A DNA stretch of 64,000 nucleotides from Pelecanus crispus (taxonomy: Eukaryota > Chordata > Aves > Pelecaniformes > Pelecanidae): NCBI RefSeq assembly GCF_030463565.1, contig NC_134646.1, positions 61,645,710-61,709,709 of the forward strand. Reading direction: 5' to 3'. Position numbers and translations under genes: made by a program. A model generated the notes under the pieces. That model saw only the letters and a program-made list of their open reading frames with translations, ran no database searches and was not told the origin of the DNA. Positions 16,023 to 54,684 of this stretch are shown piece by piece (the stretch's first letter is position 1; each line of letters opens with the position of its first letter).

Positions 16023-17886
16023 TGTTACTCATTTTTAAGTAACAGATGCAGGGGGACAGCTTTGTTTTGAGGAGGGCAGTTTCCTCCCTGCCACATCCTG
16101 CAGTCTTTCCCCATTCTGGAATGGGCCACCATCTTATAAAAACTGGAAAGGCTCGCATTTGCATTGAAAGCCTACAACATTAGTTCCTACATTTTTACTG
16201 ATCAGATTTTGGCAGGCAGGAAAGCTTTCTCCATTAACAAGCCTCGTTTTATATTTCTAAATACACTGCTTTGCTTTCCCTCCCAAATTAGCGCTGATGA
16301 TTAATGGCCATTAAAAGAATAAAACTAAACACTTGAGAGGAACCAGCATTGCAATAATTAGTTCTGAAAGCCCAGAAAGCACTCCTGAAAGCAGAGTTAG
16401 AAGTGTGTTTCTGCAAGAGCCTCTGTTACTCTCTCTAAAACCACCGCCAAGTCTGTGTGCTACAAGTTCTGCCTTGTACCTCCTCCAAGACTAACTCACC
16501 TCTGACTAGCTGCTTTGTCCAGCCGACGAGCGAACAACGAGGGGGGCGAAACAGTCCACCCTTTGGTGGCATCCCTGAAGTATTTACTCAACAGCATCAC
16601 TCATTTTTGACAGCAGCCACCTGCAGAGGAGACTGGCCCGTTCGTAAAAGTCAGCATGGAAATCAGCCAGTATCATTCCCTCAGATAACATGGCAAATCA
16701 GGCCTTACGTCACCCACAAGACAGAGCCACAGTGATGACAGGAAAGGGAACTACTTTAACAAGCACGCCACCTGGTAGCTCTTTAAACAGAGGAAAAAAT
16801 GCGAAGTGGGAAGAGGAAAGGATACATTTCTGTTTTTCAGGGCATGGCTAAAATCAATCAGGGTCCTTTTAAGACAGAAGAAAGCACACCCTTCTATCTG
16901 CAAATCTGAACAAAGGTACCACAGTCACACATCAAGCACTTCCCTCTTACTATCTTCCCGGGGCAGGTATTTCACCTGCTACATATTCAGGGAGAGGGAT
17001 GCATAACAGTGATTAAGCAACTGACCATTTACACTTGGCAAAACAGAAGGGAGAACCAGCTTTTATGTGGTCTGCCTAGTAGGCTAAGGCTGCCTGTTAA
17101 ACTTCAAGATAAACTAGTTTTTTCCCTGAGAATTCCTCCAAGGAACCCCCAATTCTTCTGTCATACAGCTGTTTCACCCACATGTCCTCTTCTACACTTT
17201 CTACTGTGCCTCACGACAGAATTTCATATACAGCTCATTTTAAATTCAGAATGACTGTTACTCTGGAAAAAAAAAATGTTTTTGAAACATCAGCTAAAAA
17301 CTATATTCTAGATTTCTTTAACCATCTCTACTGCTTTGCATCCATACGCAGTTTCACAGCTACAGTGGAAAATCCTGCTGAAGCCCGAGACACGCAGATG
17401 TAGAAGCCAGCACATGACACACGCATTGTCATACTTAAACAAGTAAGCATCCCATTAAAAGCTAACTTACTGCTCTTCATAAATTCCGAGTATGACAAAA
17501 ACCAGGAAAAGAGTCCAAAACAAACAGCTGGGGTGCTGTTACACATTCTCCAGAGCACCCACGAGGCGTTAAGGCTGGAGCAGGCAGCCAGACCACACCT
17601 TCTGTGCCGTTCTAACCCCAGCTCTCCCCTTGTGCAGACCCGCCGCGAGGCAGGACGGCCGGCCGCCACTGCAGCTTCGTCTGCAACCCCTCAACCCAAG
17701 CCATGAGTTTATCAGTTTGCTTTTACCGTTCACTGCGAGTGCTTCTTCTCCCTGCCTGAACAATACAGCAGGGCTCTGCTCCCTTCCCAGAGGTGGCCGA
17801 CTTGCCTCGAAACGCGAACATCTGCAAGCTCTCAGGCTGGACTTTACTCCCCGAGAGCGGAGGACGGCGGGCGCGGCGCCGCCTAC

Positions 17887-17916
17887 CTTAGCCACCCAGC
17901 TGAACAATGGTGACAT
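17887..17916 (-). CDS. TBC1D1: Candidate alternative first coding exon of TBC1D1 (10 codons, phase 0)
   Basis: Minus-strand ATG at 17916-17914 has A at -3 and follows an in-frame TGA at 18004-18006. It opens ten codons, MSPLFSWVAK, which run straight into the donor AAG|GTAGGC. The donor is in phase 0, identical to that of the normal first coding exon, so splicing to the next TBC1D1 exon would keep the frame. The product would swap the first 139 residues, including most of the PTB1 start, for ten new ones, and would avoid the two upstream ORFs of the normal leader. The peptide is too short for homology. The joined exon lies outside the window, so this is an inference from signals and phase. 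Confidence 0.4.
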
Positions 17917-18141
17917 CCTCCGGGCTCCGCCGCGGCGGCCGCCGGCGATCCCCGGCTCCGGCCGCTCCTCTCCGCCTCTCCCCGCTGCCTCCCGCCTGCC
18001 GCCTCATGCGCCGGGAGGGGAGCCAGCCCGCCCGGCCTCGCAAAGTTCCCCCGCGGCCGCCTCCGGGCGCCGGCCGGCGGGACCGTGAGCTCGCCGCGCC
18101 GGGGAGGCTCCCCGCGGCGGCGCCGGCTGCTGCTGCGCGGC

Positions 18142-18194
18142 GGGAAGGGAAGGGAAGGGAGGGGAGGGCCGGGCCGGGCCGGGCCGGGCCGGGG
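18142..18194 (+). repeat. G-rich (GGGAA)n / (GGGCC)n tract, G-quadruplex prone
   Basis: GGGAA units (from 18142) pass into GGGG and GGGCC units up to about 18194, giving more than eight G-runs of three or more with loops of one or two bases. Such spacing strongly favours intramolecular G-quadruplex on the plus strand. It lies in the middle of the intronic CpG island, upstream of the candidate ATG on the opposite strand. Confidence 0.8.
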
Positions 18195-18256
18195 CCGCGG
18201 CCGCGTCCCGCCTCCGCCGCGCTCCGCCTCCGCAGGGGCACCCCGCGCCGGGCTGC

Positions 18257-18286
18257 GGCCCCGGCCCCGGCCCCGGCCCCGGCCCC
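18257..18286. repeat. (GGCCCC)5 hexanucleotide repeat
   Basis: Five perfect GGCCCC units followed by GGC. On the minus strand, the strand of TBC1D1, this reads GGGGCC, the same unit as the human C9orf72 repeat. Open frames through it give Gly-Arg and Pro-Ala dipeptides, which is a property of the repeat and no sign of a gene. Confidence 0.9.
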
Positions 18287-19296
18287 GGCAGGGCGGGAGG
18301 GGAGCGGGCTCGCCCTCCGGCAGCTCGCCCGAAAACGCAGACAACCGCCGGCTACCTCACTGCATTGCCCTTTTACCTAATTCAGCGCAAAAGACAGGAT
18401 TCTCGGCTACTGTGTTGCTCACCTTCCAAAAAAAGATAGATTTAGCAATGTAGTAGGAACAATAACTACATTCATTTTTCAGGATGTTCAACTTTCTAAA
18501 AACAGAACCCCTGTATTTTTCTATTTTAAGTTTGGCTTGTGCAAATAACTGTCTCTCCAAAAATACTATATATCCATTTTGGGTAAATGGAAAAATTCCG
18601 GGCCAGGGAATGACATCTGTATTGCATAAACAGTAAGTAGCATTTGACACCACCTTATGCAAGTGTATGATCTTCTGAAAAACAAAACAAAACCCTCATT
18701 CCTATGAACTGTTCCATGTTATCATGGAAAATATTAGCAAGATATTTGTGGCTGTTTTTAAAATAGTAGCAATTAAAATACTTCAAAGCCACAACTTAAA
18801 GCTTACATTGTCAGAAAGATGATCAGTTTTACAGATGTCCTTCATAAATTTACACATACACAAATACCCCCATCATTTCTCCTCCAACAAAGCTCTCTGT
18901 ATTAAAAGAAACCATTTGGCGATAAGGAGAGAGATCTGAGATATAAAGAAATATTAAGAAAAATAGAGACTACAGTCAACCTTTTAACTCAAGAGAGAAG
19001 TATTTTCTGACTCTCCTCCAATTTCAGCTTTCTTCAGGTTTAATGGCTGTAAAGATTTTTGAGAGTCTTCACAGTATGTCACTGACAAATGAAGTCTCAC
19101 AAGAAGGCGCATTAAGAGTATAGCCCCAACTGTATTACCCAAGAACACTGTTGCTTTTGTGTTAACTCTGGTGGTGGTTTTACAGCAGACCCCATTCCCT
19201 GTGGAAGTTTTTTCCTCTGAATTGTATTTAAACATGTTTCGGCAGTTATTCTTCTCATGAATTATCCCCTCTGCCCACATTCACTGTTACAAGCTT

Positions 19297-21710
19297 CATA
19301 GAATCACAGAATCACAGAATGCTTTGGGTTGGAAGGGACCTTTAGAGGTCATCTAGCCCAACCCCCCTGCAGTGAGCAGGGACAGCTTTAACAGATCAGG
19401 TTGCTCAGAGCCGCAGCCAACCTGACCTTGAATGTTGCCATGGATGGGGCCTCCACTGCCCCTCTGGGCAACCTGTTCCAGTGCCTCACCACCCTCATTG
19501 TAAAAAATTTCTTCCTTATATCCAGTCTGAATCTATCCTCCTTTAGTTTAAAACCATTATTCCTTGTCCTGTCACAACAGTCCTTGCTAAAAAGATTCTC
19601 CCCATCCTTCCTGTAGGCCCCCTTTAAGTACTGAAAGGTCACAATAAGGTCCCCCTCCAGCCTTCTCTTCTCCAGGCTGAACAACCCCAACTATCTCAGC
19701 CTGTCCCCGTAGGAGAGGTGCTCCAGCCCTCGGATCATTTTGGTGGCCCTCCTCTGGACCCGCTCCAGCAGGTCCATGTGCTTCTTGTGCTGAGGGCCCC
19801 AGAGCTGAACACAGTACTCCAGGTGAGGTCTCACCAGAGCAGAGCAGAGGGGCAGAATCACCTCCCTCGACCTGCTGGCCACACTGCTTTTGATGCAGCC
19901 CAGGATTCGGTTGGCTTTCTGGGCTGCAAGTGCACATTGTTGACTCATGTCCAGCTTTTCATCCACCAGTACCCCCAAGTCCTTCTCCGCAGGGCTGCTC
20001 TCAATCTCTTCATCCCCCAACTTGTACTGATACCAGGGGTTGCCCCGTTTCAGGTGCAGGACCTTGCACTTGGCCTTGTTGAACCTCATGAGGTTCACAC
20101 AGGCCCACCTCTCCAGCTTGTCCAGGTCCCTCTGGATGACATCTTGTCCTTCTGGCATGTCAGCCGCACCACTCAACTTGGTGTCATCTGCAAACTTGCT
20201 GAGGGTGCACTCGATCCCACTGTCTGTGTCATTGATGAAGATGTTAAATAGCACCGGTCCCAGTACGGACCCCTGAGGGACCCCACTTGTCTCCGGTCTC
20301 CATTTGGACATCGAGCCACTGACCACAACCCTCTGGATGTGACCATCCAGCCAATTCTGTATCCACCGAACAGTCCACCCATCAAACCCATATCTCTGCA
20401 ATTTAGAGAGAAGGATGTTATGGGGGACTGTGTCGAACGCTTTACAGAAGCCCAAATAGATGACATCCATTGCTTTTCCCTTGTCCACTGATGCAGTCAC
20501 TCCTTCATAGAAAGCCACTAGGTTGGTCAGGCAGGACTTGCCCTTGGTGAAGCCGTGCTGGCTGTCTCGAATCACCTCCCTGTCCTCCATGTGCCTGAGC
20601 ATATCTTCTAGGAGGATCTGTTTCATGATCTTCCCAGGCACAGAGGTGAGGCTGACAGGTCGGTAGTTCCCAGGGTCCTCCTTTCTTCCCTATTTAAAAA
20701 TGGGCACAACGTTTCCCTTCTTCCAGTCAGCAGGGACTTCACCTGACTGCCATGACTTTTCAAACATTATGGAGAGGGGCTTGGCAACTATATCAGCCAA
20801 TTCCCTCAGGACTCTGGGATGCATCTTATCAGGTCCCCTAGACTTGTGTACATTGAGGTTCCTCAGGTGGTCTTGAACCTGATCTTCCCTTACAGTGGGA
20901 GGGGCTTTACCCCCCTGGTCTCCATCTTGTGGTCCATCAATTTGTGAGGGGTGAGAAGAGAGGTTGCCGTTGAAGACTGAGGCAAAAAAGTTGTTGAGTA
21001 CCTCAGCCTTCTCCTTGTCTGTTGATACTAGGTTGGCATTCTTGTTCATCGGGGGGGTACGCTTTCTTTAACCTTCCTTTTCTGGCTGACAGAGCTGTAG
21101 AAGCCCTTCTTGTTATTCTTTACGTCCCTTGCCAAATTCAGCTCCAGCCATGCCTTGGCCTTCCTGACCCCATCGCTGCACAACCAGGCAGCTTCCCTGT
21201 ACTCTTCCCAGGATACCTGTTCCTGCTTCCACTGCCTGTGCAGTTCCCTCTCGCTCTTTAGTTTGACCAGCATGTCTCGACTCAGCCATGCTGGTCTCTT
21301 CCCTTCCCTGCCTGATTTCTTATACCTGGGGACTGAGAGCTCTTGCACTCTATGGAAGGTGTCCTTAAAGATGTGCCAGCTGTGTTCCGTTCCCCTGTCC
21401 CTGAGGACTGTTTCCCAGGGGGTCTTTCTGACTAACTCCTTGAAGAGCTGGAAGTTTTCTCTCCTAAAATTTAGGGTCCAGACTATCCTCCTTGCTTTTC
21501 CCATGCCCCTAAGGAGTGTGAACTCCACCAATGTGTGATCACTGCAGCCCAGGCTGCCTCCAATCTTGACGTCACCAATGAGCTCACTTGCATTGGTGAC
21601 CATCAGGTCCAGTATTACATCCCCTTGGGTAGGGGTGTCTATTACCTGGCTTAGGAAGTTATCCTCAATGCATTTCAGGAATCTCCTGGATTGCCTACAG
21701 CTCACATTTC
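19297..21710 (-). mobile_element. CR1 LINE copy 1, 5'-truncated, ORF2 with three visible lesions
   Basis: A non-LTR retrotransposon on the strand of TBC1D1. Its 3' end is three octamers (CATAGAAT CACAGAAT CACAGAAT, 19297-19320). The ORF2 remnant starts inside the endonuclease domain (DVKIGGSLGCSDHTLVEF) and covers the reverse transcriptase with [19 protein letters not shown] and the catalytic FADDTKL motif, then the C-terminal part. Lesions: a frameshift at the seven-G run near 21050-21056, an in-frame TAG at 20690-20692 and another at 19691-19693. The frames on either side of the two TAGs agree. It lacks the 5' UTR, ORF1 and the start of ORF2, so it cannot move by itself. Confidence 0.93.
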
Positions 21711-22460
21711 TCTCTTTTCCCTGTACACAAGAAGGTCTTCATAAATTCAGTTGAAAAAATGCAAGAAAAGAATATGCCTGCCAGTAATTACCAGTATCCG
21801 TTATGTGTTCTTTGTTTAAAAACACCCACAAATTTTATCCTTTATTACTTAGTTTTCACTGTTCATTAGGATTTCCTTGAGTCTTGTCTCATCACTTCCC
21901 ATTCCAAGTAGCAGGCTAAATGGTTTCTCCTTTTTCAGAGGAAAAAGACAGAAAGTAACTAACTACTGTGAGAGTATTGTTTGTCCGGTGAATTCAAAAT
22001 GTAATAAAGTTTTGATTCTTACATACAGCTATATTAAAAGATACCAAAACAAAGGTGTCTATTTAAGGAAATCCCACACATCTATGGAACCTCCATATGA
22101 TGCAAGATGAGACAACTGATTCACCTGGATCCACTGAAGGAAAAGAGTAATGAAATCCTCTGGATTTCATCCTATCCAAAGACTCAATCAAGCCTGACTA
22201 GCTGGCTTCTGAAAAGATACTGTGGTGAAGAAAAGAATGAGCTTTGTTACATCTCTTGGCTAAATTACAAGCAAACTCCTTTTTTCTCAATGCAAAATAA
22301 AACAGAAGATTAATCACAAAACCAAACTACCTTACCAAACAAGTTCTGCATCAGCCCCCTGATGAGACACAACAGCAAGACCTGCCAGCTAACCACTGAC
22401 CGGCAGTGCCTGTCCCCTTAACGCAAAGTGCATAGGAGCTCACTGCCCTGAGCTGCACAT
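21711..22460. other. Unique sequence between two CR1 copies
   Basis: About 750 bp of AT-rich intron DNA separates the two CR1 insertions. No gene, repeat or regulatory signal was recognised. Because it is unrelated to CR1, the copies are two separate insertions and not one split element. Confidence 0.6.
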
Positions 22461-24935
22461 CACAGAATCATAGAAACATTTAGGTTGGAAAAGACCTTTA
22501 AGATCATCCAGTCCAACCATTAACCTAACATTACCAAGTCCACACGAAACCAATTAAGGGTAGACTAGACTAAACCATGTCACAAAGTGCCACATCTACC
22601 CGTTTTTTGAACACTTCCAGGGATGGTGACTCCGCCACCTCTCTGGGCAGCCTGTTCCAATGCTTGACTACTCTTTCCGTGAAGAAATTTTTCCTAATAT
22701 CCAACCTAAACTTCCCCTGGCGCAGCTTGAGCCCATTTCCTCTTGTCCTATCACTAGCTACTTGGGAGAAGAGACCAACAGCCACCTCACTACAACCTCC
22801 TTTCAGGTAGGTGTAGAGAGCGATAAGGTCTCCCCTCAGCCTCCTCTTCTCCAGGCTAAACAACCCCAGTTCCCTCAGCTGCTCCTCATAAGGCCTGTGC
22901 TCCAGACCCTTCACCAGCTTCGTTGCCCTTTTCTGGACACGCTGCAGCACCTCAATGTCCTTCTTGTATTGAGGGGCCCAAAACTGGACACAGTATTCCA
23001 GGTGCGGCCTCACCAGCACCGAGTACAGGGGGACAATCACCTCCCTGTTCCTGCTGGCCACACCATTCCTGATACAAGCCAGGATGCTGTTGGCCTTCTT
23101 GGCCACCTGGGTACATTGCTGGCTCATGTTCAGCTGGCTGTCAACCAACACCCCCAGGTCCTTTTCGGCCAGGCAGCTTTCCAGCCACTCTTCCCCAAGC
23201 CTGTAGCGTTGCATGGGGTTGTTGTGACCGAAGTGCAGGACCCGGCACTTGGCCTTATTGAACCTCACACAGTTGGCCCCAGCCTATCGGTCCAGCCTGT
23301 CCAGATCCCTCTGTAGAGCCTTCCTACCCTCGAGCAGATCAACACTCCCACCCAGTTTGGTGTCATCTGCAAACCTACTGAGGGCGCACTCAATCCCCTC
23401 ATCCAGATCATCGATAAGGATATTAAACAAGGCTGGCCCTAAAACAGAGCCCTGGGGAACACCGCTCGTGACCGGCCGCCAACTGGACTTAACTCCATTC
23501 ACCACTACTCTCTGGGCTTGGCCACCCAACCAGTTTTTTACCCAGAGAAGAGTACACCCATCCAAGCCATGAGCTGCCAGCTTCCCAAGGAGAATGCTAT
23601 AGGAGACAGTGTCAAAGGCTTTGCTGAAGTCCAGGTAGATGACGTCCACAGCCTTTCCTTCATCCACCAGGCAGGTCACCAGGTCATAGAATGAGATCAG
23701 GTTGGTCAAGCAGGACCTGCTTTTCATGAACCCATGCTGGCTGGGTCTGATCCCCTGGTTGATCTGCACTTGCTTCTTGAGTTCACTCAATATGAAACAC
23801 TCCATAATTTTTCCCGGCACAGAGGTCAGGCTGACAGGCCTGTAGTTCCCTGGGTCCTCCTTCTGGCCCTTCCTGTAGATGGGCATCACATTGGCAAGCC
23901 TCCAGTCATCAGGGACCTCCCCTGTTAACCAGGACTGCTGACAGATGACAGGAAGAGGCCTGGAGAGCTCCTCTGCCAGCTCCCTCAGTACTCTTGGGTG
24001 GATCCCATCTGGCCCCATAGACTTGTGAGTGTCCAGGTGGCATAGCAGGTCATTAACTGCTTCCTCCAGGACTATGAGGGCTCCATTCTGCTCCCTGTCC
24101 CTGTCTTCCAGCTCAGGGGGCTGAATACCCTGGGGATGACTGGTCTGGCTATTAAAGACTGAGGCAAAGAAGGCATTAAGTACCTCAGCCTTTTCCTTGT
24201 CCTCAGTGACAACGTTCCTCCCCACATCCAGCAAAGGATGGAGATTCTCCTTGGCTCTCCTTTTATTGCTGATGTACTTATAAAAGCATTTTTTATTATC
24301 TTTTACAACAGTGGCCAGATTGAGTTCTAGCTGGGCTTTTGCCTTTCTAATTTCCTCCCTGCATGACCTAACAAGATCCCTGTACTCTTCCTGAGTTGCC
24401 CGCCCATTCTTCCAAAGGCGGTTGACTCTTCTTTTTTCCCTGAGTCCCAGCAAAAGCTCCCTATTCAGCCAGGCCGGTCGTCTTACCCACCGGCTGGTCT
24501 TACGACACACAGGGACAGCCCGCTCCTGCGCCCTTAAGACTTCCTTCTTGAAGAAGGCCCAGCCTTGCTGGACCCCTTTGCCCTCAGGACTGCCTCCCAA
24601 GGGACTTTCCCAACCAGCGTCCTGAACAGGCCAAAGTCTGAAGCCCATGGTAACAGTTTTGCTGCCCCTCCTCTTTACATCGCCCAGAATCGAGAACTCT
24701 ATCATATCATGGTCACTAAGCCCAAGACAGACTCTGACCACATCTCCCACAAGCCCTTCTCTGTTTGTAAACAGCAGGTCAAGTGAGGCACCTCCCCTGG
24801 TAGGCTCACTTACCAGCTGCATCAGGAAGTTATCCTCCACACACTCTAGGAACTTCCTAGACTGTTGCCTCTCTGCTGTGTTGTATTTCCAGCAGATGTC
24901 CGGCAAGTAGAAGTCCCCCATGAGAACATACACAC
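22461..24935 (-). mobile_element. CR1 LINE copy 2, 5'-truncated, nearly intact ORF2 with one nonsense codon
   Basis: A second CR1 in the same orientation, from a different subfamily judged by its tail (CACAGAATCATAGAAACATT, then GGTTGGAAAAGACC). The reading frame runs from 24933 to 22570 in one phase and is broken only by TAG at 23284-23286. It contains the endonuclease C-terminal part ([21 protein letters not shown]), the RT motifs [24 protein letters not shown] and FADDTKLGG, and the terminal region ending CDMV. The TAG sits where copy 1 has Trp in ERWA, consistent with TGG to TAG. Loss of ORF1 and the ORF2 start makes it non-autonomous. The few lesions suggest a fairly recent insertion. 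Confidence 0.94.
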
Positions 24936-27900
24936 TAAAGATGAAATCCAGCTCTCACCAAAGAAAATGGGATGACTTTCTTAGTGGTTTCCAGATACTC
25001 AGTGGAAAAAGAAATGACTACGTTTTGGGTAATCTTCTTTGTACTGGTAGTGAGTTAAAAGTGTGGAGTAAAGCGTTTTGGCTATCTGCTAATGAGAAGC
25101 AAATACGAAAAATGCAAGACGTTGGGCTGGTGCCCAGAGATAATGTGCAATTCAGTTCCTGTGTGGCAGACAGAAGGAACAATTTCTCACCAGAGTGCTG
25201 GGCACTGACTCAGCAGTGGAGCCCTTTCCAACCTCTCCTGTAGGTTTCAGCTTTTATATGAATATCTTTTCAGCCACAAAATTTGTAACTGCTAAAATTC
25301 TTTGATTCAAGTGACATTAGCATTTCCTGCTCAGGAATGAAAAGCAGCGTTGGTGATGGGTTATCTGTCTTCCCTACCAGCAGTATCCACCCTCTCTCCA
25401 ACAGAGTGTCAGAGCATAAGAGGGTTACCACGTGCTGAGGTTCATTTGGGATCCTGGATCTCAGTGAGAGAACTGAGGGTAGGAGGGACCTGTGAAGTGA
25501 AGGGTGATCCTACACCAAGGGCCATGATGCTTAGCAGACAGTGGAATGAAGTCCTCCTTGGGCAAGTGCTGTCCTGCAGGCAAGGTTAGATCAACTAGAG
25601 TGAAGTCAGGAGAGTATTAAATGATAAAATGCATCATGAGGTTCAAGTAGCTTTCCCAGTTGCTACCATTATCTTAAGATTCTTCCCTATGGGTCTGTTT
25701 TGGACAAGAAGTGTTCAGATGTTCTTTTTTCCTTGGAAAAGGTCTATCTAGAGAAAACTAATTGTTTTCTTATGCCCTATTATAAGGCAGTTCTGGGTGA
25801 TAGCAGATGCTGAGCTGACCAGTCAGATATCTTGAAGGGAATGGATCACCTCCTAGCATTTGATTCAGAAAGTTGAGAGTAGAAAGGTTTTGGTGAAGTC
25901 CTTAATCAAACAAGGGACTGGAGAAAATACTACTCATGGAATGCGGAACCCATCATCCTGTAAGGGACCTCTCTTTGCATAAGGATGAATGTTACAGAGA
26001 ATCTAAAATCAGAGAAAAGTAGCTTTACCTTCAACACCTGAAGTTGGCTACAGGAGGAGAAGCTGGTAAGAGGACAGTTTTAGATGTACAGTATCTGACC
26101 AACAAACATGATGCGTGCCAAAGGTAGCCACAAAATCCAGGTACAGAGGGAAAGCAACATTACAGAGAAAGAAAGAGAGGTAACCAAGCTTTAGGGTCCT
26201 AGTGACCATCCATAAACATTAAGGCCATCTGACAGAAAACACTCATCTGGACTGAAATCATCCTGCCACTTCAAACACTTCCAAAAACACTGATGAGTAA
26301 ACTTTGGATTGGCAAGCTCTATGTAGGACTGAGTATGTTTTGTCTTCCCACAGACAGCAAAAAAAAAGCTTAAAGCCATCAGGAACTTTGCCATGGGTTC
26401 TGACTAATTCTTCTCAAGCATGATTGTATGTCTGTGTTTGACCAAGATCAAATGTGCACTGCTGAGTGATCCAGTTGTGATCAACTGATCAGATCTCTAT
26501 AAATGAGCAAAAACCCACAGCCTGAATCTGCAGGTAAGTCCAGGCAGACCTGTGAAGAGATCACTTTGATCTGAATAGCTGGATGCAAAAAACCCACAAG
26601 GACAACGTGGCAAATGAGCAACGGGAAAAACTCAGTGCATAGCGGGGAACTGCCACACAGAGACATCAGAGGTTCCACACATTTATTCTGTTTTGTGATG
26701 GAGGCTTTTCTGGCAGCTGTGAAACTGGAGCAGGAAGAGTGGAGCACAAGCAGAGCAAACTGGCAAACTGCAGAAGCAGATTACAGAGCTCAAAACAAAT
26801 GGGGATATTCCCAGTGTGCAGTAACAAAGACACAGGTCGAGCCCTTGAGATCATAAACTAGGTCTCCACTGTCATTGAAACAGTTGGAAACCTCATGTTT
26901 TTCTCCCTGCAAGGCAATATTTCTTGGTCTTCTCAGTGTCACCAAGCTCCAAAGGGACTTTCACCAGGACAACTATTTCAGCTCTCCAGGCTGCTGAGAC
27001 AGCACTGGAGGAGAGAGCAGCAGCTGCCACAGAGATGACACACACCTGCACACACACTCTGACACAACTGGATAAACTATAAAATATTAATGATGCAAGA
27101 CTGCTTATTTTAAAAATCCCCCTGACAATGGGACATGAAGGATGTGACAATTAAATGGGGATTAATGTCCACTGGCACTAGATATACAGCCATGGAAGGA
27201 CTTTGCACCATTTTCCTCCAGCCTCCCGCTGCTTCCTTGCAGCAAGCACTGAAAGGTCTCAGGAGAAAAAGTTTAAGAAGTACTTTCTGAAATGCAATTA
27301 ATTAAAGGTTATACTTAAAGCGTTCCTTGATCTTGAAACTTATATGGTTAACCCAAGTTACTCAGATGGGAAGAAAGACACTTCATTTGAAAATGTCTCA
27401 TTTTCTTTGTGGAGAAGCACTACCTCACACTGGAAAAAAAATTAAATACTAAGCACTTCTACTTCCAATAATGGATAAGTTACGTAGTGAAAAAAGTCTA
27501 GAAAGTGTTGAGGAAAATCAGACTGTGAACAGAAGATGACAACTCTCACTTGACTGGTTAAAATCAAAACATAATTATAAAATTTATCAATTCCCCATGT
27601 GCTGTGGGAGATACATATACTATGAATGCCTACTTCCATTACATGGGACTTCATGTTAGTTAAGATGTTCATATTCACTTTATCCTATTAGAACACTCTA
27701 GTAATGAATAATATAAAATAAGCAATTTTGTATGCATAATTTTACATAGTTATAGCCTAGCTCTTAATTAGCTAGCTAATATAGCCTAGCACATAACTAA
27801 CTACAAACACAGAGTCCCACCACCCTAAACATACTGTTTTGTGTCCTTCAGTTGCAACAGTAGGAGACTAGGAAAGTATAGAGTTACACAGTATGAAGAG

Positions 27901-38600: not shown

Positions 38601-38659
38601 GCTTCACTAAAAAAAAAGTGACAGTGCTGTCTGCTGACTTTTACTCTGCATACAGGAAT
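35649..38659 (-). other. TBC1D1: TBC1D1 intron 2 between SINE and CR1 copy 3
   Basis: No gene or clear repeat was recognised in this 3 kb. Open frames are short and scattered on both strands. Confidence 0.5.
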
Positions 38660-39520
38660 TTATTTTCCCCTGTGACCAGCAAGAACAGGTGGATGAGGCA
38701 CTCTACAGACAGCCAGAAGTAGCCTCACATTCACAGACCCTGGTCCTAATGGGGGACTTCAACCACCCAAGTATCTGCTGGAGGAACAACACAGCAGGGC
38801 ATAATCAATGCAGCAAGTTCCCAGAGAGCATCGATGACAACTTGCTGCCCCAAGTGACAGAGGAGGTGATGAGAAGAGGTGCTCTGCTGGACCTCATACT
38901 TACCAATATGGAAGGCCTTGTTGGGGACATGAAGGTCAAAGGCAGCCTTGGCTGCAGTGATCATGAGATGGTGGAGTTCAGGATCCTGAGAAGCAGGGCA
39001 AAAAGCAAGATCTCAACCCTGGACTTCAGAAGTGCGGACTTTGGCCTCTTCAGGGACCTACTTGAAAAAGTACCATGGAATAAAGGCCCTGGAGGGAAGA
39101 GGGCCCAAGAGGGAAGAGGGCCCAAGAAAGCTGGTTGTTATTCAAAGACCACCTCCTTCAAGCTCAAGGGCAGTCCATCCAAATGACCAAGAAGTCAGGT
39201 GAAAATGCCTGCATGGATGAACAAGGAGCTCCTGGCAAAACTCAAACATGAAACGGGAGAATACACAGTGGAAGCGGGGACAGGTAACCTGAGAGGAATA
39301 TACAGACACCGTCCGAGCACGCAGAGATGTAGTGAGGAAAGCGAAAGCCCACCTGGAGTTGAATCTGGCAAGGGATGTCAAAGTCAACAAGAAGGGCTTC
39401 TACAGCTACACAGGTGACAAAAGGAAGACTAGGGAAAATGTGAGCCTGCTGCTGAATGGCACACAGGACACGGAAAAGGCTGAGGTACTGAATGCCCTCT
39501 TTGACTCAGCCTTCTGTGAA
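38660..39520 (+). mobile_element. CR1 LINE copy 3, internal ORF2 fragment, antisense to TBC1D1
   Basis: Plus-strand fragment of ORF2 beginning in the endonuclease domain (LVLMGDFNHPSICW, GSLGCSDHEMVEFRIL) and reaching the linker before the RT ([26 protein letters not shown]). It lacks the RT, the 3' UTR and the octamer tail, so it is truncated at both ends. A perfect 17-bp tandem duplication (39092-39108 and 39109-39125) shifts the frame; after it the expected frame resumes with SWLLFKDHLLQAQ from 39129. A further shift lies between about 39240 and 39330. Confidence 0.9.
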
Positions 39521-43916: not shown

Positions 43917-44333
43917 TTTTGTCTGATCATCAGCTTTAAATACATAGCAGATACTTCGCTGACTTGTGGCTCCATCCTTTATCAGACAAGCAAAGTAGCT
44001 TGGATCGTGGCTGTTGTGAATCAGTTTGTGGACGTGCTGTGGCTTGTATTCAAACAAACTCGAATAAATCAAAGGATCCCACTGCTGGGTTTTCCCTGTG
44101 TCTGGTTCACATCGCAAACTCGCTGGTGAAACATAAAGTCGGATTTGGCTGACGCTAGGTTCTTCTTTGGAAGACTTTGTACTGAGCATCCGGATCTCTG
44201 CCACAATCCAAGGCAGCATTGACATGGTGGTTAGGGAATGCACTGGCAGCGAACCAATGAGCTGGAGACTGAAACTTGCTGAGAAATCACTAGGTGTTTG
44301 ATACTTTTTAACTTTGAATGTTATTGCCTCCAT
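43917..44333 (-). CDS. TBC1D1: TBC1D1 first coding exon (start codon and N-terminal part of the first PTB domain)
   Basis: The exon encodes 139 residues from ATG (44333-44331) to the donor AAA|GTAAGT (exon ends 43917), in phase 0. The start has an excellent Kozak context (A at -3, G at +4). Diagnostic stretches are GSLPVHSLTTMSMLPW (residues 27-42), QQWDPLIYSS (83-92) and HNSHDPSYFACLIK (106-119). They match vertebrate TBC1D1 from memory, and the bird and human exons have equal length. TBC1D1 is a Rab GTPase-activating protein paralogous to TBC1D4/AS160. It controls GLUT4 vesicle traffic in muscle downstream of AMPK and Akt, and its two N-terminal PTB domains precede a C-terminal TBC domain. 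This exon covers the start of PTB1; the remaining exons lie beyond the left edge. TBC1D4 is the main alternative, but the PVHSLTTM stretch fits TBC1D1 better. Confidence 0.95.
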
Positions 44334-49315: not shown

Positions 49316-51479
49316 ACTCCGCATCAGACTGCTGACATGACAGCAGTTTTTTTCTGTAAGTCGTTTTTCTTTCTCCCCTCCAAGCTAAGCAAAACTTCCA
49401 ATGATATAGCAAGATCTTGTGAAAAACAGCTGGTCCTGAAGAGCACAAATTTGTTCAGCTCTTCTCTGCATGACATTAGTGCTGAGCCTGCTGACAAATG
49501 GAACCAGAGGCACTGGTACTGACTGCACTTCACCACTGATTATTTTAGCAGAAATATCATACTACTTAAGGATTATGAGGAGCCCTGGCCTGCAGCCAGA
49601 GCTCCGGAACACAAGCCAGAACTAAATACCGCTCCTCTCCCTCTCTGTCTGATCCCTGACTGAGATATACATTGTCTTCACTCATGCTGACAGATTTCTC
49701 TATTCACCTAGCAGGATATATAGAAAAACACAAATGCGAATATGTATTAGGTATGTCATGAAATGGTCACTGCCGAGAAGAGGTCCTTTTATGTTTCCAT
49801 CAATATGCATGAAATGACTCTCTTCTCTGGTACCACAACACAGCATCCATTAGGTCATTCTACGGGGCAGCCAGTTGCAAGCTTTATCCTTCTTCTTGAG
49901 GCTTTAAACAACATTTTTGGCCTGTTTTCTATAGTTAAATAAGATTGTTTAGATATCATGCCACAGGTTGTTCTCAGTTTTCAAATAGTTCTAATTTAAC
50001 TCAAACTGGCACTTGGAATCATGATGTGCCCTTCTGTTGCAAGGATGTTCTTTTTATCTCATAACAACTTACTATCTGCTGTTTCCTTCCGGAGCTAAGG
50101 CTTGCTGTGGGCAACAGCATGTGCAAGTCCAGAAGTCAATTCACCTCAGAAATTATTTTTAATTTCCATTCTTTTTTCATATACATGCATTAAGTGCTGG
50201 CTTTTAAAAGATTATTTTCAATACCATCAGTAGCTTCAGACAGGGCCCTGAATAATGTTCCACCAAGTACTCTGAGCAAATCATTTGATTTTGTGGTAAT
50301 AAACACACCTAAAATATTTACCAATACAGCCAGCATTTATACCACTCCTTAAATAGGTTAAAAAAATTGAAGAGTATTAATAAAAAAAATTCCAGCACAA
50401 GGGTAATATGTTCCTGATTATAAACATAGAAGTTTATAATCAGCTATCAAATGAAGAAAATAGCTCACTGTTCCTGCCCTTGACACCTGTTGCTATTTCC
50501 TTAATAGAGTCCACAGAAATTAATATGCTGATGATTGAGGTGGTCCGAGTCGGACCTGAACAAAATATTGGGCTGTTCTACTACCCCAATGCACTAAAAA
50601 AAAAATCTTTCTAAAAGAAAGCTTGCTAGGTGAATTACGTTCTGAATGCCATTCCCTTTTATTCAATTGCATATCCACAGGCAAAATACTTGCATCCAAC
50701 TTTTCAGTCAGCCAAATTATAAAGCGAAAAAAGTGTCAAGTCATCCACGTATCATTGAACGTGTTTCACATTCCTTCCAGCCTGTCATTCTTCTCACCTG
50801 CAAGCATTTCTACATTTGCATATTACCTATGACTTTCAGCATTTCTATAAAACAAGCTGTGACAAATTTCTATTTCGTCACTTACAAGTGTTAAAAAGTA
50901 TAATCATATTCATCAGCTCAGAGGTATTTGCTATTCAGGAGATGTATACGTTTATTAATTTTGACCCGTGATGTTCCATTCAATCTCTGGGCTTAACGGC
51001 AGGCACAAATCCCACCATCTGCACTCTTAAAGGTTCCTACAGCAGACCTGCCACATCAGCCTCCCTCCCAAACACAACAGAGCATATAAAGGTCTCAATC
51101 TTTTCAACCTGCACTGTAAATAACTTCATTTGTTTCATACCTCTCATGAACGCGGTTTCAAGAGATCATTCCCTTGTTAAAAGTATGCGAATCTAAAGGG
51201 CCATAAAAATGCTGGGCCAGTGCGTGGGGATTTTAACCCTAAACTCCAAGCGTGCTGCTGTAGGAAAGGTTAGTTTTGCCCCCATGGGAAGAGTCGCTGT
51301 GTTGCTCCAAGAAGGAGCAGGTCCTGGGAAGAGTTACACCGAGCGGCCGTGCACGGATGGGTGAGGAAGGTGCAGGGAAGAGTGAGAAAAAGAACTAAAA
51401 GCAGACCGTAGCTCATCAGGTCAATCTGAGATTCAATTCAAGCAGGTCTTTCGGTTATTCCCACGAGAAGCCAGCTCTC

Positions 51480-52560
51480 CCAAGACCCGGCCAGCTGAGA
51501 AGCGCGGCCCCGCCGCCCCCGCTCGGCTCCCGCCCGGCCGCCCCGTCCCGTCCCGTCCCGTCCCGCCCCGCCCCGCAGAAATACTGTCCCCAGAGCAAGT
51601 GCGGCGACTTCACCAGGGGCTCCGTCACGACCGACGGCGCGATCCTGCCGCGACAGCCGGGCGGCCCGCCCTGCCCTGCCCTGCCCACGCCGCGGGCGCG
51701 GAGCGGGGCCGCGGGCCGGAGCCGCCTCACAGCCGTCTCCTCTGGGCCGGCCGGGGGCCGGTGCCGCCTCACAGCCCGGGTGCTGCGCGGCCACCAGCCC
51801 CGCCAGCCCGCAGCCGCCCCCCGCGCCGCGGTACCTAATTTCTCGCCCCAAGTCTTTCACTTCCTCAAAGCTACTGACCGCTCCTTCCTCCTTCCCTCCC
51901 TCCAGCAACGCGGCTCGGCCCCGCCAGCGCCGCTCCCCCGGGCCCGCCCGCAGCGGGGGCACGGCGGCCCCCACCGCCGCCCCCCGCCAGGCCTGGGGCC
52001 GGGGCCGGGGGCTGCCCGGCCCGCCGCTTACCGCCGCCGCAGGATGTGCTCGCTGCAAGGAAGCGCCCTCGGCGGGCAGCGGCCGCGGGCTGCCAGGCGC
52101 CGCCTGCCCAGCTCCCGCGGAGGGGAGAGGGGCAGGGAGCCGCCAAGGCGCGGCGGGCCGGGGGAGGAGAGGCCGCACCAGCGCCTCAGGGCGCCGGCGG
52201 CGCGGCCGGCCGGGCCGGGCGAGGGGGCTGCTCGCCGCCTCCTGTCGCTGTCCGCCCCGGGCAGGACGGGCCGCCCCTACCTGCCGGCGGCCCGGGCGGG
52301 AGGAGGCGGGGGAGGCCGGGCCGCCGCTCGCCGCCTCCCGCCGCAGCCGGCGCGGGCGAAAATAGCAACAGGCGGCGGGTCCCCGGCCCGGCGGGGGCGG
52401 GGAGGGACAGGCGCCCGCCAGAGGCGGCCGGCGGCGGGCAGCCGGCGGCGGGCGCCCGTGTCGCGACAGAGCGCGGCTGAGGCCCTCTCCCCCGGCCCGT
52501 TTCGTCCCTCTCGAGGAAGATTCTGGCGACGCTGTGTGCCTGTCACAACCCCTCATTTCC
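51480..52560 (-). promoter_or_regulatory. TBC1D1: CpG island: likely main TBC1D1 promoter and first non-coding exon
   Basis: About 1.1 kb of very GC- and CpG-rich DNA stands out sharply from the AT-rich flanks. It lies on the 5' side of the TBC1D1 coding exon, at the distance expected of a first intron. Minus-strand splice donors inside it could end exon 1: CAG|GTAGGG (exon end 52281), GCG|GTAAGC (exon end 52032) and TAG|GTACCG (exon end 51835). Sp1-like CCCCGCCCC boxes and a (CCCGT)4 run lie near 51542-51575. The long open frames on both strands here are a by-product of GC content. Which donor and start site are used cannot be read from the sequence. Confidence 0.75.
52032..52281 (-). other. 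TBC1D1: Interval bounded by candidate exon 1 donor sites of TBC1D1
   Basis: Two good donors face the TBC1D1 coding exon: exon end at 52281 (GGCAG|GTAGGG) and exon end at 52032 (GGCG|GTAAGC). Either could join the acceptor at 44432. Alternative first-exon ends are common in such islands. No transcript evidence is available here. Confidence 0.4.
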
Positions 52561-52570
52561 CGCAGGAAAC

Positions 52571-52640
52571 ATGCCGGCGTCGCCGTGCCGTGGCGAGGCC
52601 GGGTGGACGGCGGGGTTAGCCGAAGTTGCGAGCGCAGGAG
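52571..52640 (+). other. Possible divergent transcript exon with plus-strand splice donor
   Basis: At the outer edge of the main island, on the strand opposite TBC1D1, an ATG at 52571 is followed by an open frame into a consensus donor GGAG|GTAAGG (exon end 52640). CpG-island promoters often fire in both directions, so this could be the first exon of a short divergent non-coding RNA. There is no recognisable protein and no downstream exon was identified. Confidence 0.2.
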
Positions 52641-54684
52641 GTAAGGAGGGAACCATTTTCCAAGGGAAGTTTGCTGACAAAGCTGGAACCAGCCGGGCAC
52701 CTGCAGTCTGGAAGCAGGCAAGCTCCCCTCGGGTCTGGGCCCAGCCCTGGCCGTGGGGCAGCCTTCTGCAGGGTCACCTGCTCGCAATCACCTTCGTGCC
52801 TTCCTCCCACTTCTTCCACGCACGAGAAGCCACACCTGCGTATATATATATAGACAGAGATGTAAAATCGCCGTAAGAGTTGGCACTAGTTGGTCTTTCA
52901 GTTGCCAGCGAGGATAAGGAATGAATGGATCCGGAGACTTAATTATACTCCTCTGCAAGCGCTCTTTCCAGATGATCAAGGCACCCTACATTCCCCTTCT
53001 GCAAACCACTTCTGCACTCAATTAATTTCAAGTCTCCTTGGCAGCAAGACCACTGATTTACTTACTTTTAAGTCTGTGCATATTTGTAGAATCAGAGCTT
53101 TCTCAAGGAAATTTGCTCTGCCACTGCACCTGTGCTATGCTGTGAGGGAAACGGTGGAGTAAGCTGTCAAATGCAAGCACATGGTTGCCCCAGATTATGA
53201 AAAACAAGTCACATTTTGGTATGTAAGCACATCCCCTACTTGCAAAGTGTAAGTTGGTTGTATCTACATGGCTTTTGCTTGCTAGGCGTACTTTTATAGG
53301 ATCACTGACATGCGAATCAAAGTATGAAAGCAGCAGTTCCCTCAGAGCACTTGGTCCCAATCTGTACTCGGTTCACGGCTTGCTGCTTCTCCCTCAGACA
53401 TGGGAATAGGTATGAGTGCCTCGTGTTTTCAGTTACATCCTTTGCGTTCCTTGGGAGTAGGAACGCCACCTCTCTGCAAACTGTGTCTGACTTACATCTT
53501 TACACCATCGCTACTAAGGACGAGGCTCTCACTCCAGTTACCACCCACCAACCTCAGTACCTGAGACAAGTGTGTCCTGTTGCTTAAGCCTGCTGCCTGA
53601 GCATTGCATGCCTCTAGTAATCATGTCACAGAGGACAGTGAACTGCATCCCCACCCAGACAGCTCCAGCACTTCAGCAAAGGCTCATGCATTCCCAAATT
53701 ACCAACCAGTGTTCTTAGGAAGACTTTTTTTACTGCCTCACTGTTGCCTTTCAGAAGGTGATAATGAAACAGCTAAGAATCCTAGAAGACTATTTCTTGC
53801 TGCTTGGAAAATCCCTGAACAACAGAAGTCAATACTAGAGCATCACAAATACAAAACCTTTCTTCCTTCTCTTTGATAGCTGGGAAAGAAATTGGACTGT
53901 GCTTGAACTCATTCATGGGGCCCTCTATTATTTTTCCTGTTACCTCTGGCTTACATGTTTTAATTCTTTGCTTAGCAGAGTTTTTGTCAAATTACTCATG
54001 TTCTGATACAATATTTTATAAGCAAAGTGAAATGCCTTGGTTAAGAACTATGCTTATATTGGTTTAATAGTTCCATTCACTCTAATTTTGAAAAAAGTCC
54101 CTTTTTTTCATTCAAGTAGATATAAACTATTTCCTTACAGTTAATAGGAGACAAAACAAACCTGAAGTGTGTATAACTTGAATTCAACACCTTGAAAAAC
54201 TATTCAGAACAGTCACTCATTATCTGTTTAATCCAGCCAATCATCTATAATGCTTATTGGTAAGGTGTAGTAAAGATATAGTATCTGAATGCCTCCAAAA
54301 GAAAGGAAATTTTAATACAACATTTGCAATATTTTGTGATAATTTTATTTTAGAATATTTCACTTTTCTATTAAAACTAACTAAAAAATCCAAGTAATAA
54401 AAATACAAGATCTGTCAATGGTTTTAGAAGGTATTAGTCTGATGTCTGTTACCAGCACAACAACAGATGAAAATGTCATAATAAGAAGAACAACATACTA
54501 CTAATGAGATAGAGCGGAGAAACGCACAGGTCACAGTAAGCGTCTGGAGCTAACTCCACCATGTTCAGCAGCGTACGTATAAGTGACTGTTCATTTCAGT
54601 GCTGGTAATGCAGACTTAAAACACTGCTATAACAGAAATCAAATTGTTTGCAGAGAGGGTTTAGAAACAATGGACAAGAAGGAG

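What the first reader, a model, noticed from the sequence alone, without database searches (positions are those of the whole stretch)
17887..18360. Intronic CpG island with a phase-matched alternative first exon for TBC1D1
Seen: a minus-strand ATG (17916) after an in-frame stop (18004-18006), ten codons, then the donor AAG|GTAGGC in phase 0, inside a CpG island deep in the TBC1D1 intron. The normal first coding exon also ends in phase 0. Inferred: an alternative promoter giving a TBC1D1 without its first 139 residues and thus with an altered PTB1 domain. A phase match occurs one time in three by chance, so it is suggestive only.
Basis: partly seen in the sequence, partly recalled or inferred. 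Interest (0 to 1): 0.75.

Follow-up and report, generated by a model that had tools for sequence, protein, structure and literature searches.

The report
Possible second TBC1D1 promoter (bird-like genome)
A promoter-like CpG island lies deep inside the metabolic gene TBC1D1 of what appears to be a bird and could start a shorter protein lacking its first docking domain, but sequence alone does not show that it is used.

Summary
The island (17481-18460, GC 0.68, CpG o/e 0.89; intron about 0.2) is one of four strict CpG islands in 264 kb; the other three lie where the promoters of TBC1D1, PGM2 and RELL1 are expected. Outside the window I found the next TBC1D1 coding exon, 20.5 kb away, with a phase-0 acceptor, so splicing would give MSPLFSWVAK|VPEIISSIRQ... 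That protein lacks 139 of 161 PTB1 residues but keeps PTB2 and the Ser237 site. A second promoter is plausible. The peptide is weakly supported: simulated islands give such an arrangement in 8-11% per strand, and given this donor an in-phase ATG arises in 37.5%. GC boxes are few (2, against 14, 17 and 11). No RNA, methylation or second-species data could be reached. Alternative promoters in intragenic islands are a known kind; TBC1D16 has a published one. Ordinary in kind, interesting because of the gene, unproven.

The parts
17481..18460 (.). CpG island in the intron after the first coding exon of TBC1D1; candidate alternative promoter
   Evidence: GC 0.68, o/e 0.89; one of four strict islands in 264 kb; full-length match only at this place in the genome
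17887..18060 (-). candidate alternative first exon; 3' end fixed by the donor, 5' end (TSS) unknown, placed only roughly by the change of GC skew near 18060
   Evidence: donor AAG|GTAGGC scores 8.62, inside the range of TBC1D1's own donors; skew bins
17887..17916 (-). ten-codon open frame MSPLFSWVAK ending in phase 0
   Evidence: ATG context CGGAGGATGT (A at -3)
18004..18006 (-). in-frame TGA upstream of the ATG
17888..18007 (-). overlapping upstream ORF (39 codons, context CGGCGCATGA) ending one base before the exon end; would damp translation if the TSS lies upstream of it
43917..44333 (-). normal first coding exon of TBC1D1 (residues 1-139), skipped by the alternative transcript
   Evidence: 68% identity to recalled human TBC1D1, E 7e-62; donor AAA|GTAAGT
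51321..52760 (-). CpG island upstream of the first coding exon, taken as the main TBC1D1 promoter by position (no 5' untranslated exon was mapped)
18423..18674 (-). possible internal exon or pseudo-exon at the island's upstream edge: polypyrimidine 3' splice site, strong donor AAG|GTGAGC, 84 open codons, phase 0-0
   Evidence: no Pfam match

Best explanation
The island is a second, internal promoter of TBC1D1. Transcription runs on the minus strand from within the island, about 26 kb after the normal first coding exon. The short first exon ends at 17887 and is spliced over 20.5 kb to the next coding exon (window coordinate -2621). Translation starts at ATG 17916 and makes MSPLFSWVAK joined to Val140 onward. 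The product lacks the PTB1 domain except its final stretch but keeps PTB2, the Ser237-equivalent AMPK site and, if all downstream exons follow, the Rab-GAP domain. Expected effect, from the literature: weaker docking to AMPK-alpha1 and perhaps to other PTB partners, hence a Rab-GAP less tightly tied to energy signals. Shown here: island, exon map, splice signals, phases, open joined frame. Inferred: transcription, splicing, use of this ATG, stability and function. My estimates: island is a promoter in some tissue 0.7; a minus-strand first exon splices to TBC1D1 exon 2, 0.55; this ATG is used 0.4.
For: Four islands pass strict criteria in 264 kb; the other three lie where promoters of TBC1D1, PGM2 and RELL1 are expected by order and strand, and PGM2's first coding exon was found inside its island. 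High CpG o/e in a CpG-poor intron implies an unmethylated germline state (general knowledge); predicted islands in chicken match measured non-methylated islands well (PMC3583005, passages). Three donors scoring at least 7.5 lie inside the island, 3 of 3 on TBC1D1's strand; one plus-strand donor lies 39 bases outside it. The donor outranks 10 of 17 best donors near TBC1D1 exon ends. Acceptor phase 0. Without this ATG the first in-frame ATG of exon 2 is codon 314, after eight out-of-frame ATGs. The same search rule recovers PGM2's first coding exon, MAARSSAGDAALRRAAEQWLLWDK|. GC skew goes from -0.39 to +0.43 on the minus strand between 18180 and 17941.
Against: No transcript, CAGE, methylation or cross-species data. 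The full arrangement arises by chance in 8-11% of simulated islands per strand, and given the donor in 37.5%. The same rule also yields a 92-codon candidate in TBC1D1's main island that is probably not coding, and none on either strand of the RELL1 island. GC boxes: 2, against 14, 17 and 11 in the other islands. In 17700-18480 simple patterns for TATA, NRF1, ETS, YY1, CCAAT, SP1 (7-mer), CRE, CACGTG, E2F, MEF2 and TCT found nothing; only GATA, CAGCTG and ACTACA matched once each. Donor strand bias is no safe guide: 3 to 1 at PGM2, but 4 to 3 at TBC1D1's main island and none at RELL1's. Nor is poly(A)-signal asymmetry: as expected here (0 to 2) and at PGM2 (0 to 1), but reversed at TBC1D1's main island (3 to 0) and at RELL1, a plus-strand gene (0 minus, 2 plus). 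GC skew is also mildly positive further upstream, 18360-18181. An overlapping upstream ORF may suppress the ATG.
Confidence: 0.4

Rival explanations
1. The island is a real alternative promoter with a real donor, but the ATG is incidental: the transcript is untranslated or regulatory, or its translation ends in the overlapping upstream ORF.
For: Given the donor, an in-phase ATG arises by chance in 0.375 of simulations; the overlapping ORF from 18007 covers the start site; the main island shows a similar candidate that is probably not coding.
Against: The ATG has A at -3, lies close to the exon end, and is the only one of three upstream ATGs open in phase.
Confidence: 0.25
2. An orphan CpG island: an unmethylated enhancer or Polycomb-type element of TBC1D1, PGM2 or KLF3 that makes no stable TBC1D1 mRNA.
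For: Few GC boxes. Chromatin loops link a site upstream of KLF3 with TBC1D1 and PGM2 in chicken (PMC13116375, passages), so the locus has long-range regulation.
Against: 3 of 3 in-island donors of at least 7.5 are on the gene's strand (weak, see controls); the other three strict islands of the region lie at expected gene starts.
Confidence: 0.25
3. First exon of a different minus-strand or divergent plus-strand transcript, such as a non-coding RNA inside the intron.
For: The 20.5 kb between donor and acceptor was not exhaustively tested for other exons; CpG-island promoters are often bidirectional (general knowledge).
Against: The coding exons I identified downstream on this strand are TBC1D1's (searched with TBC1D1 alone; KLF3 and PGM2 probes gave nothing there); no plus-strand donor of at least 7.5 lies inside the island.
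Confidence: 0.07
4. A chance GC-rich stretch without regulatory role.
For: Contains simple GGGCC and CGGCCC tandem repeats.
Against: CpG o/e 0.89 over 980 bases is not expected to persist in a methylated intron whose background is about 0.2 (reasoning from general knowledge).
Confidence: 0.03

Closest known systems
TBC1D16-47kD (intron-5 transcript of another TBC Rab-GAP; Vizoso et al. 2015, seen only through passages of PMC6927937)
   Same: Intronic alternative start site of a TBC Rab-GAP giving a smaller protein; linked there to loss of methylation
   Different: Other gene, with transcript and protein evidence as reported there; here nothing beyond sequence, and the loss is the PTB1 domain
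Non-methylated islands of vertebrates (Long et al. 2013, PMC3583005, passages)
   Same: CpG and GC content of an unmethylated island, here away from the main gene start
   Different: Methylation not measured here
PGM2 first coding exon in its own CpG island, 82903-82832 in window coordinates
   Same: Short CpG-island first coding exon ending in AAG|GT, phase 0, same strand
   Different: It is the gene's normal first exon and agrees with recalled human PGM2; for MSPLFSWVAK I found no counterpart
TBC1D1 R125W, the obesity-linked PTB1 variant (PMC6156765, passages)
   Same: Lies in the exon that the alternative form would lack; reduces AMPK-alpha1 binding and Ser237 phosphorylation
   Different: Point mutation in human, not an isoform; the bird residue aligned there is Gln (human numbering from the recalled sequence)

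Membership tests
Intragenic CpG-island alternative promoter | CpG-island composition away from the main start | tested here: met
Intragenic CpG-island alternative promoter | Same-strand donor compatible with a downstream exon of the host gene | tested here: met
   donor 8.62, phase-0 acceptor
Intragenic CpG-island alternative promoter | Unmethylated, H3K4me3-marked, with transcription starts | not testable with these tools
   no RNA or chromatin data held
Intragenic CpG-island alternative promoter | GC-box content like neighbouring promoters (supporting, not a strict requirement) | tested here: not met
   2 GC boxes against 14, 17, 11
Intragenic CpG-island alternative promoter | Conserved first exon in relatives | not testable with these tools
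   the genome has no relatives in the collection (stated)
PTB1-less TBC1D1 isoform | Alternative protein lacks PTB1 and keeps PTB2 and Ser237 | tested here: met
   By conceptual splicing only: PF00640 hit (E 9e-4, 19.7 bits, below the 20.9 cut-off) spans residues 110-157 of the normal form and is absent from the alternative; RKSFSQPG retained
PTB1-less TBC1D1 isoform | Protein exists | not testable with these tools
   no proteomics or ribosome profiling

The most novel reading that the evidence does not exclude
TBC1D1 in this lineage has a methylation-controlled internal promoter that makes a Rab-GAP without PTB1, with a new hydrophobic ten-residue N-terminus. It would uncouple the protein from AMPK-alpha1 and IRAP docking and let tissues switch between energy-gated and less gated control of glucose-transporter traffic, at a locus repeatedly linked to growth in chickens.
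Probability: 0.3. Interest if true: 0.55.

Novelty: new member of a known kind. Interest (0 to 1): 0.35.

Why it matters
TBC1D1 lies in a major growth QTL between broiler and layer chickens (as stated in PMC9731970, passages), and a PTB1 variant is linked to human obesity (PMC6156765, passages). An internal promoter that removes PTB1 would be a regulatory target that coding-variant studies could miss. It could be checked directly in bird RNA data.

Tried and rejected
A second copy or paralogous exon: the peptide-degenerate pattern with donor, up to 2 mismatches, occurs once in the genome, at this place (the tool warns that its DNA search skips simple repeats). TBC1D4, the paralogue (named by recall from the weaker hits), was located (exon 2 at C1:180195859; exon 1 at C1:180120958), but its intron could not be read. 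DNA search with the island found, besides itself, three weak matches: two on C15 and one to the island's own opposite strand. The island is not the 5' end of the neighbouring CR1 elements: these run on the minus strand and end near 19300, some 840 bases upstream of it (CR1 named from recall). Membrane-binding helix idea: 18-residue windows over the alternative N-terminus have hydrophobic moments of 0.34-0.53, the highest in the normal helix alone, so not pursued. Pfam gave no meaningful match for the alternative form (one viral family, E 0.12, 10.9 bits against a cut-off of 24.6) and none for 18423-18674 or the frame 17888-18376. PDB sequence search of the normal N-terminus gave two weak matches to ANKS1B chains (E 0.019 and 0.03; that these are its PTB domain is recalled) and one unrelated chain (E 0.93).

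Papers. Eight searches bore on TBC1D1 or the peptide: TBC1D1 plus 'alternative promoter' (24 papers, 20 listed), 'chicken, isoform' (10: 95, 20 listed), 'first exon' (19: 10 of 10), 'promoter, chicken, transcription start site' (20: 4 of 4), 'CpG island' (45: 18, 15 listed), 'transcript variants, exon, isoforms' (48: 14 of 14), 'alternative transcription start' (52: 9, 8 listed), and the peptide (53: 0). Two more concerned TBC1D4 (31) and orphan islands (34). Of 12 papers opened I saw passages (for PMC6927937 also abstract and outline). None of these passages reports this promoter. PMC6927937 concerns TBC1D16 and PMC7388224 TBC1D14. PMC11653684 names Tbc1d1 among genes with developmentally changing exon use in muscle, without detail in the passage. 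PMC4348661 reports no obvious methylation variation in the TBC1D1 promoter region between chicken breeds in muscle, without saying which promoter.

Full report
What was checked. The minus strand reads ATG at 17916, an in-frame TGA at 18006-18004, ten codons MSPLFSWVAK, and AAG|GTAGGC with last exonic base 17887. That the genome is a bird's is an inference from CR1-like elements (named from recall), genome size and chromosome sizes; no call names the species.

Gene context. With recalled human TBC1D1 as probe, I mapped TBC1D1 on the minus strand over the window and 140 kb beyond it. The normal first coding exon is 44333-43917, 139 codons, ending AAA|GTAAGT in phase 0. The next coding exon starts at window coordinate -2621, after CCCCTCCCGTAG, in phase 0. 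The candidate exon thus lies 26 kb after one and 20.5 kb before the other. PGM2 (63.8-78.4 kb, minus strand) and RELL1 (an exon at 122 kb, plus strand) lie upstream.

The island. 17481-18460 has GC 0.68 and CpG o/e 0.89; flanking intron has o/e 0.22 and 0.19. With strict criteria (500-base windows, GC at least 0.55, o/e at least 0.65) there are four islands in 264 kb: this one and those at about 51-53, 82-84 and 110-112 kb. I assign the other three to TBC1D1, PGM2 and RELL1. For PGM2 the first coding exon was found inside the island; for TBC1D1 and RELL1 the assignment rests on order and strand only, as no 5' untranslated exon of TBC1D1 and no first exon of RELL1 was mapped. With looser criteria two more short islands of 340 and 300 bases appear, the second next to the RELL1 island. 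The island matches nothing else at full length in the genome. In chicken, predicted islands agree well with measured non-methylated ones (PMC3583005, passages). This is the best evidence that the element is a promoter or promoter-like.

Splice signals. With a textbook donor matrix (recalled) the donor scores 8.62. Of the 17 best-scoring GT sites near TBC1D1 exon ends, 7 score higher and 10 lower; some of those 17 may not be the true donors. Sites this good occur 0.44 times per kb per strand in the region. Within the island three donors reach 7.5, 3 of 3 on the minus strand (17599, 17887, 18423); the one plus-strand donor listed, 17442, is 39 bases outside it. The same count, islands with 300 bases on each side, gives 3 minus to 1 plus at PGM2, 4 to 3 at TBC1D1's main island and none at RELL1's, so this bias is weak evidence.

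Chance. First-order Markov copies of the island's minus strand give at least one phase-0 ATG-to-donor candidate behind a stop in 8.0% of 2000 runs; block-wise copies of 17481-18660 give 10.7% of 4000. In any phase the figures are 16.1% and 21.4%. Given the donor, a usable in-phase ATG arises in 37.5%. So the peptide adds little to the case. As a control, the same rule applied to both strands of four islands gave phase-0 candidates on three of eight strands: this island's minus strand, PGM2's minus strand (its first coding exon, by agreement with recalled human PGM2), and TBC1D1's main island, minus strand (92 codons, donor CAG|GTAGGG, probably not coding); none for the RELL1 island.

Promoter features. 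On the minus strand GC skew goes from -0.39 (18180-18121) through -0.06 and +0.12 to +0.43 (18000-17941), which would fit a start near 18060; but it is also mildly positive from 18360 to 18181. In 17700-18480 simple patterns for TATA, NRF1, ETS, YY1, CCAAT and several others found nothing; GATA, CAGCTG and ACTACA matched once each. GC boxes number 2, against 14 (TBC1D1), 17 (PGM2) and 11 (RELL1). In 2 kb from the island's middle, poly(A) signals number 0 in the minus and 2 in the plus direction, as would fit a minus-strand promoter. PGM2 agrees (0 and 1), but TBC1D1's main island (3 and 0) and RELL1's, for a plus-strand gene (0 and 2), show the reverse, so this tells nothing. Three ATGs lie on the minus strand between the island edge and the donor; only 17916 is open and in phase. 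The one at 18007 opens a 39-codon frame that overlaps it and ends at 17888.

What it would make. Joining exon and acceptor gives MSPLFSWVAKVPEIISSIRQAGKIARQ.... PTB1 has been defined as residues 1-161 and PTB2 as 162-381 (PMC6156765, passages), so 139 of 161 residues are replaced by ten. The PF00640 match of the normal form (residues 110-157, 19.7 bits, just below Pfam's cut-off of 20.9) is absent from the alternative form. The Ser237-equivalent motif RKSFSQPG (bird residue 256) stays. In mammals PTB2 alone binds AMPK less well than PTB1+2, that residual binding needs Ser237, and R125W in PTB1 lowers binding and phosphorylation. The PTB domains also bind IRAP, APPL2 and VPS13 proteins (PMC7578007, passages). 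A PTB1-less form should therefore be less well gated by AMPK; this is inference. If ATG 17916 were not used, the first in-frame ATG of exon 2 is codon 314, behind eight out-of-frame ATGs, and the product would lose Ser237.

Comparison with what is known. Alternative promoters in intragenic CpG islands are common (general knowledge). TBC1D16, another TBC Rab-GAP, has a published short isoform from an intronic start site that is thought to be switched on by loss of methylation (passages of PMC6927937; the original paper was not read). I found no report of this promoter for TBC1D1 in eight paper searches, judged mostly from listings, some of them capped. NCBI or Ensembl bird annotation could not be consulted and may already hold this transcript. 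I therefore call it a new member of a known kind, unproven.

Verdict. Observation confirmed. Interpretation plausible and partly supported: the island is very likely functional and promoter use is the leading reading; the peptide and its isoform remain a guess somewhat better than chance.

Noticed in passing
18423-18674, minus strand: A 252-base stretch with a polypyrimidine acceptor, a strong donor AAG|GTGAGC and 84 open codons, phase 0-0, at the upstream edge of the island; it would fit in frame between TBC1D1's first two coding exons. It was the only such candidate on the minus strand of the intron, against two on the plus strand, so it may be a pseudo-exon.
   Followed up: partly
19388-24954, minus strand: Two stretches of broken reverse-transcriptase frames typical of CR1 LINEs (named from recall), the nearer ending about 840 bases upstream of the island.
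   Followed up: no
38638-39186, plus strand: A further open frame of 182 codons resembling a CR1 endonuclease fragment (named from recall).
   Followed up: no
52281-52556, minus strand: A 92-codon open frame with donor CAG|GTAGGG in TBC1D1's main island; perhaps a 5' untranslated exon's donor with an incidental frame.
   Followed up: partly
82832-82903 in window coordinates (outside the window, C4, minus strand): PGM2's first coding exon MAARSSAGDAALRRAAEQWLLWDK in its CpG island.
   Followed up: yes
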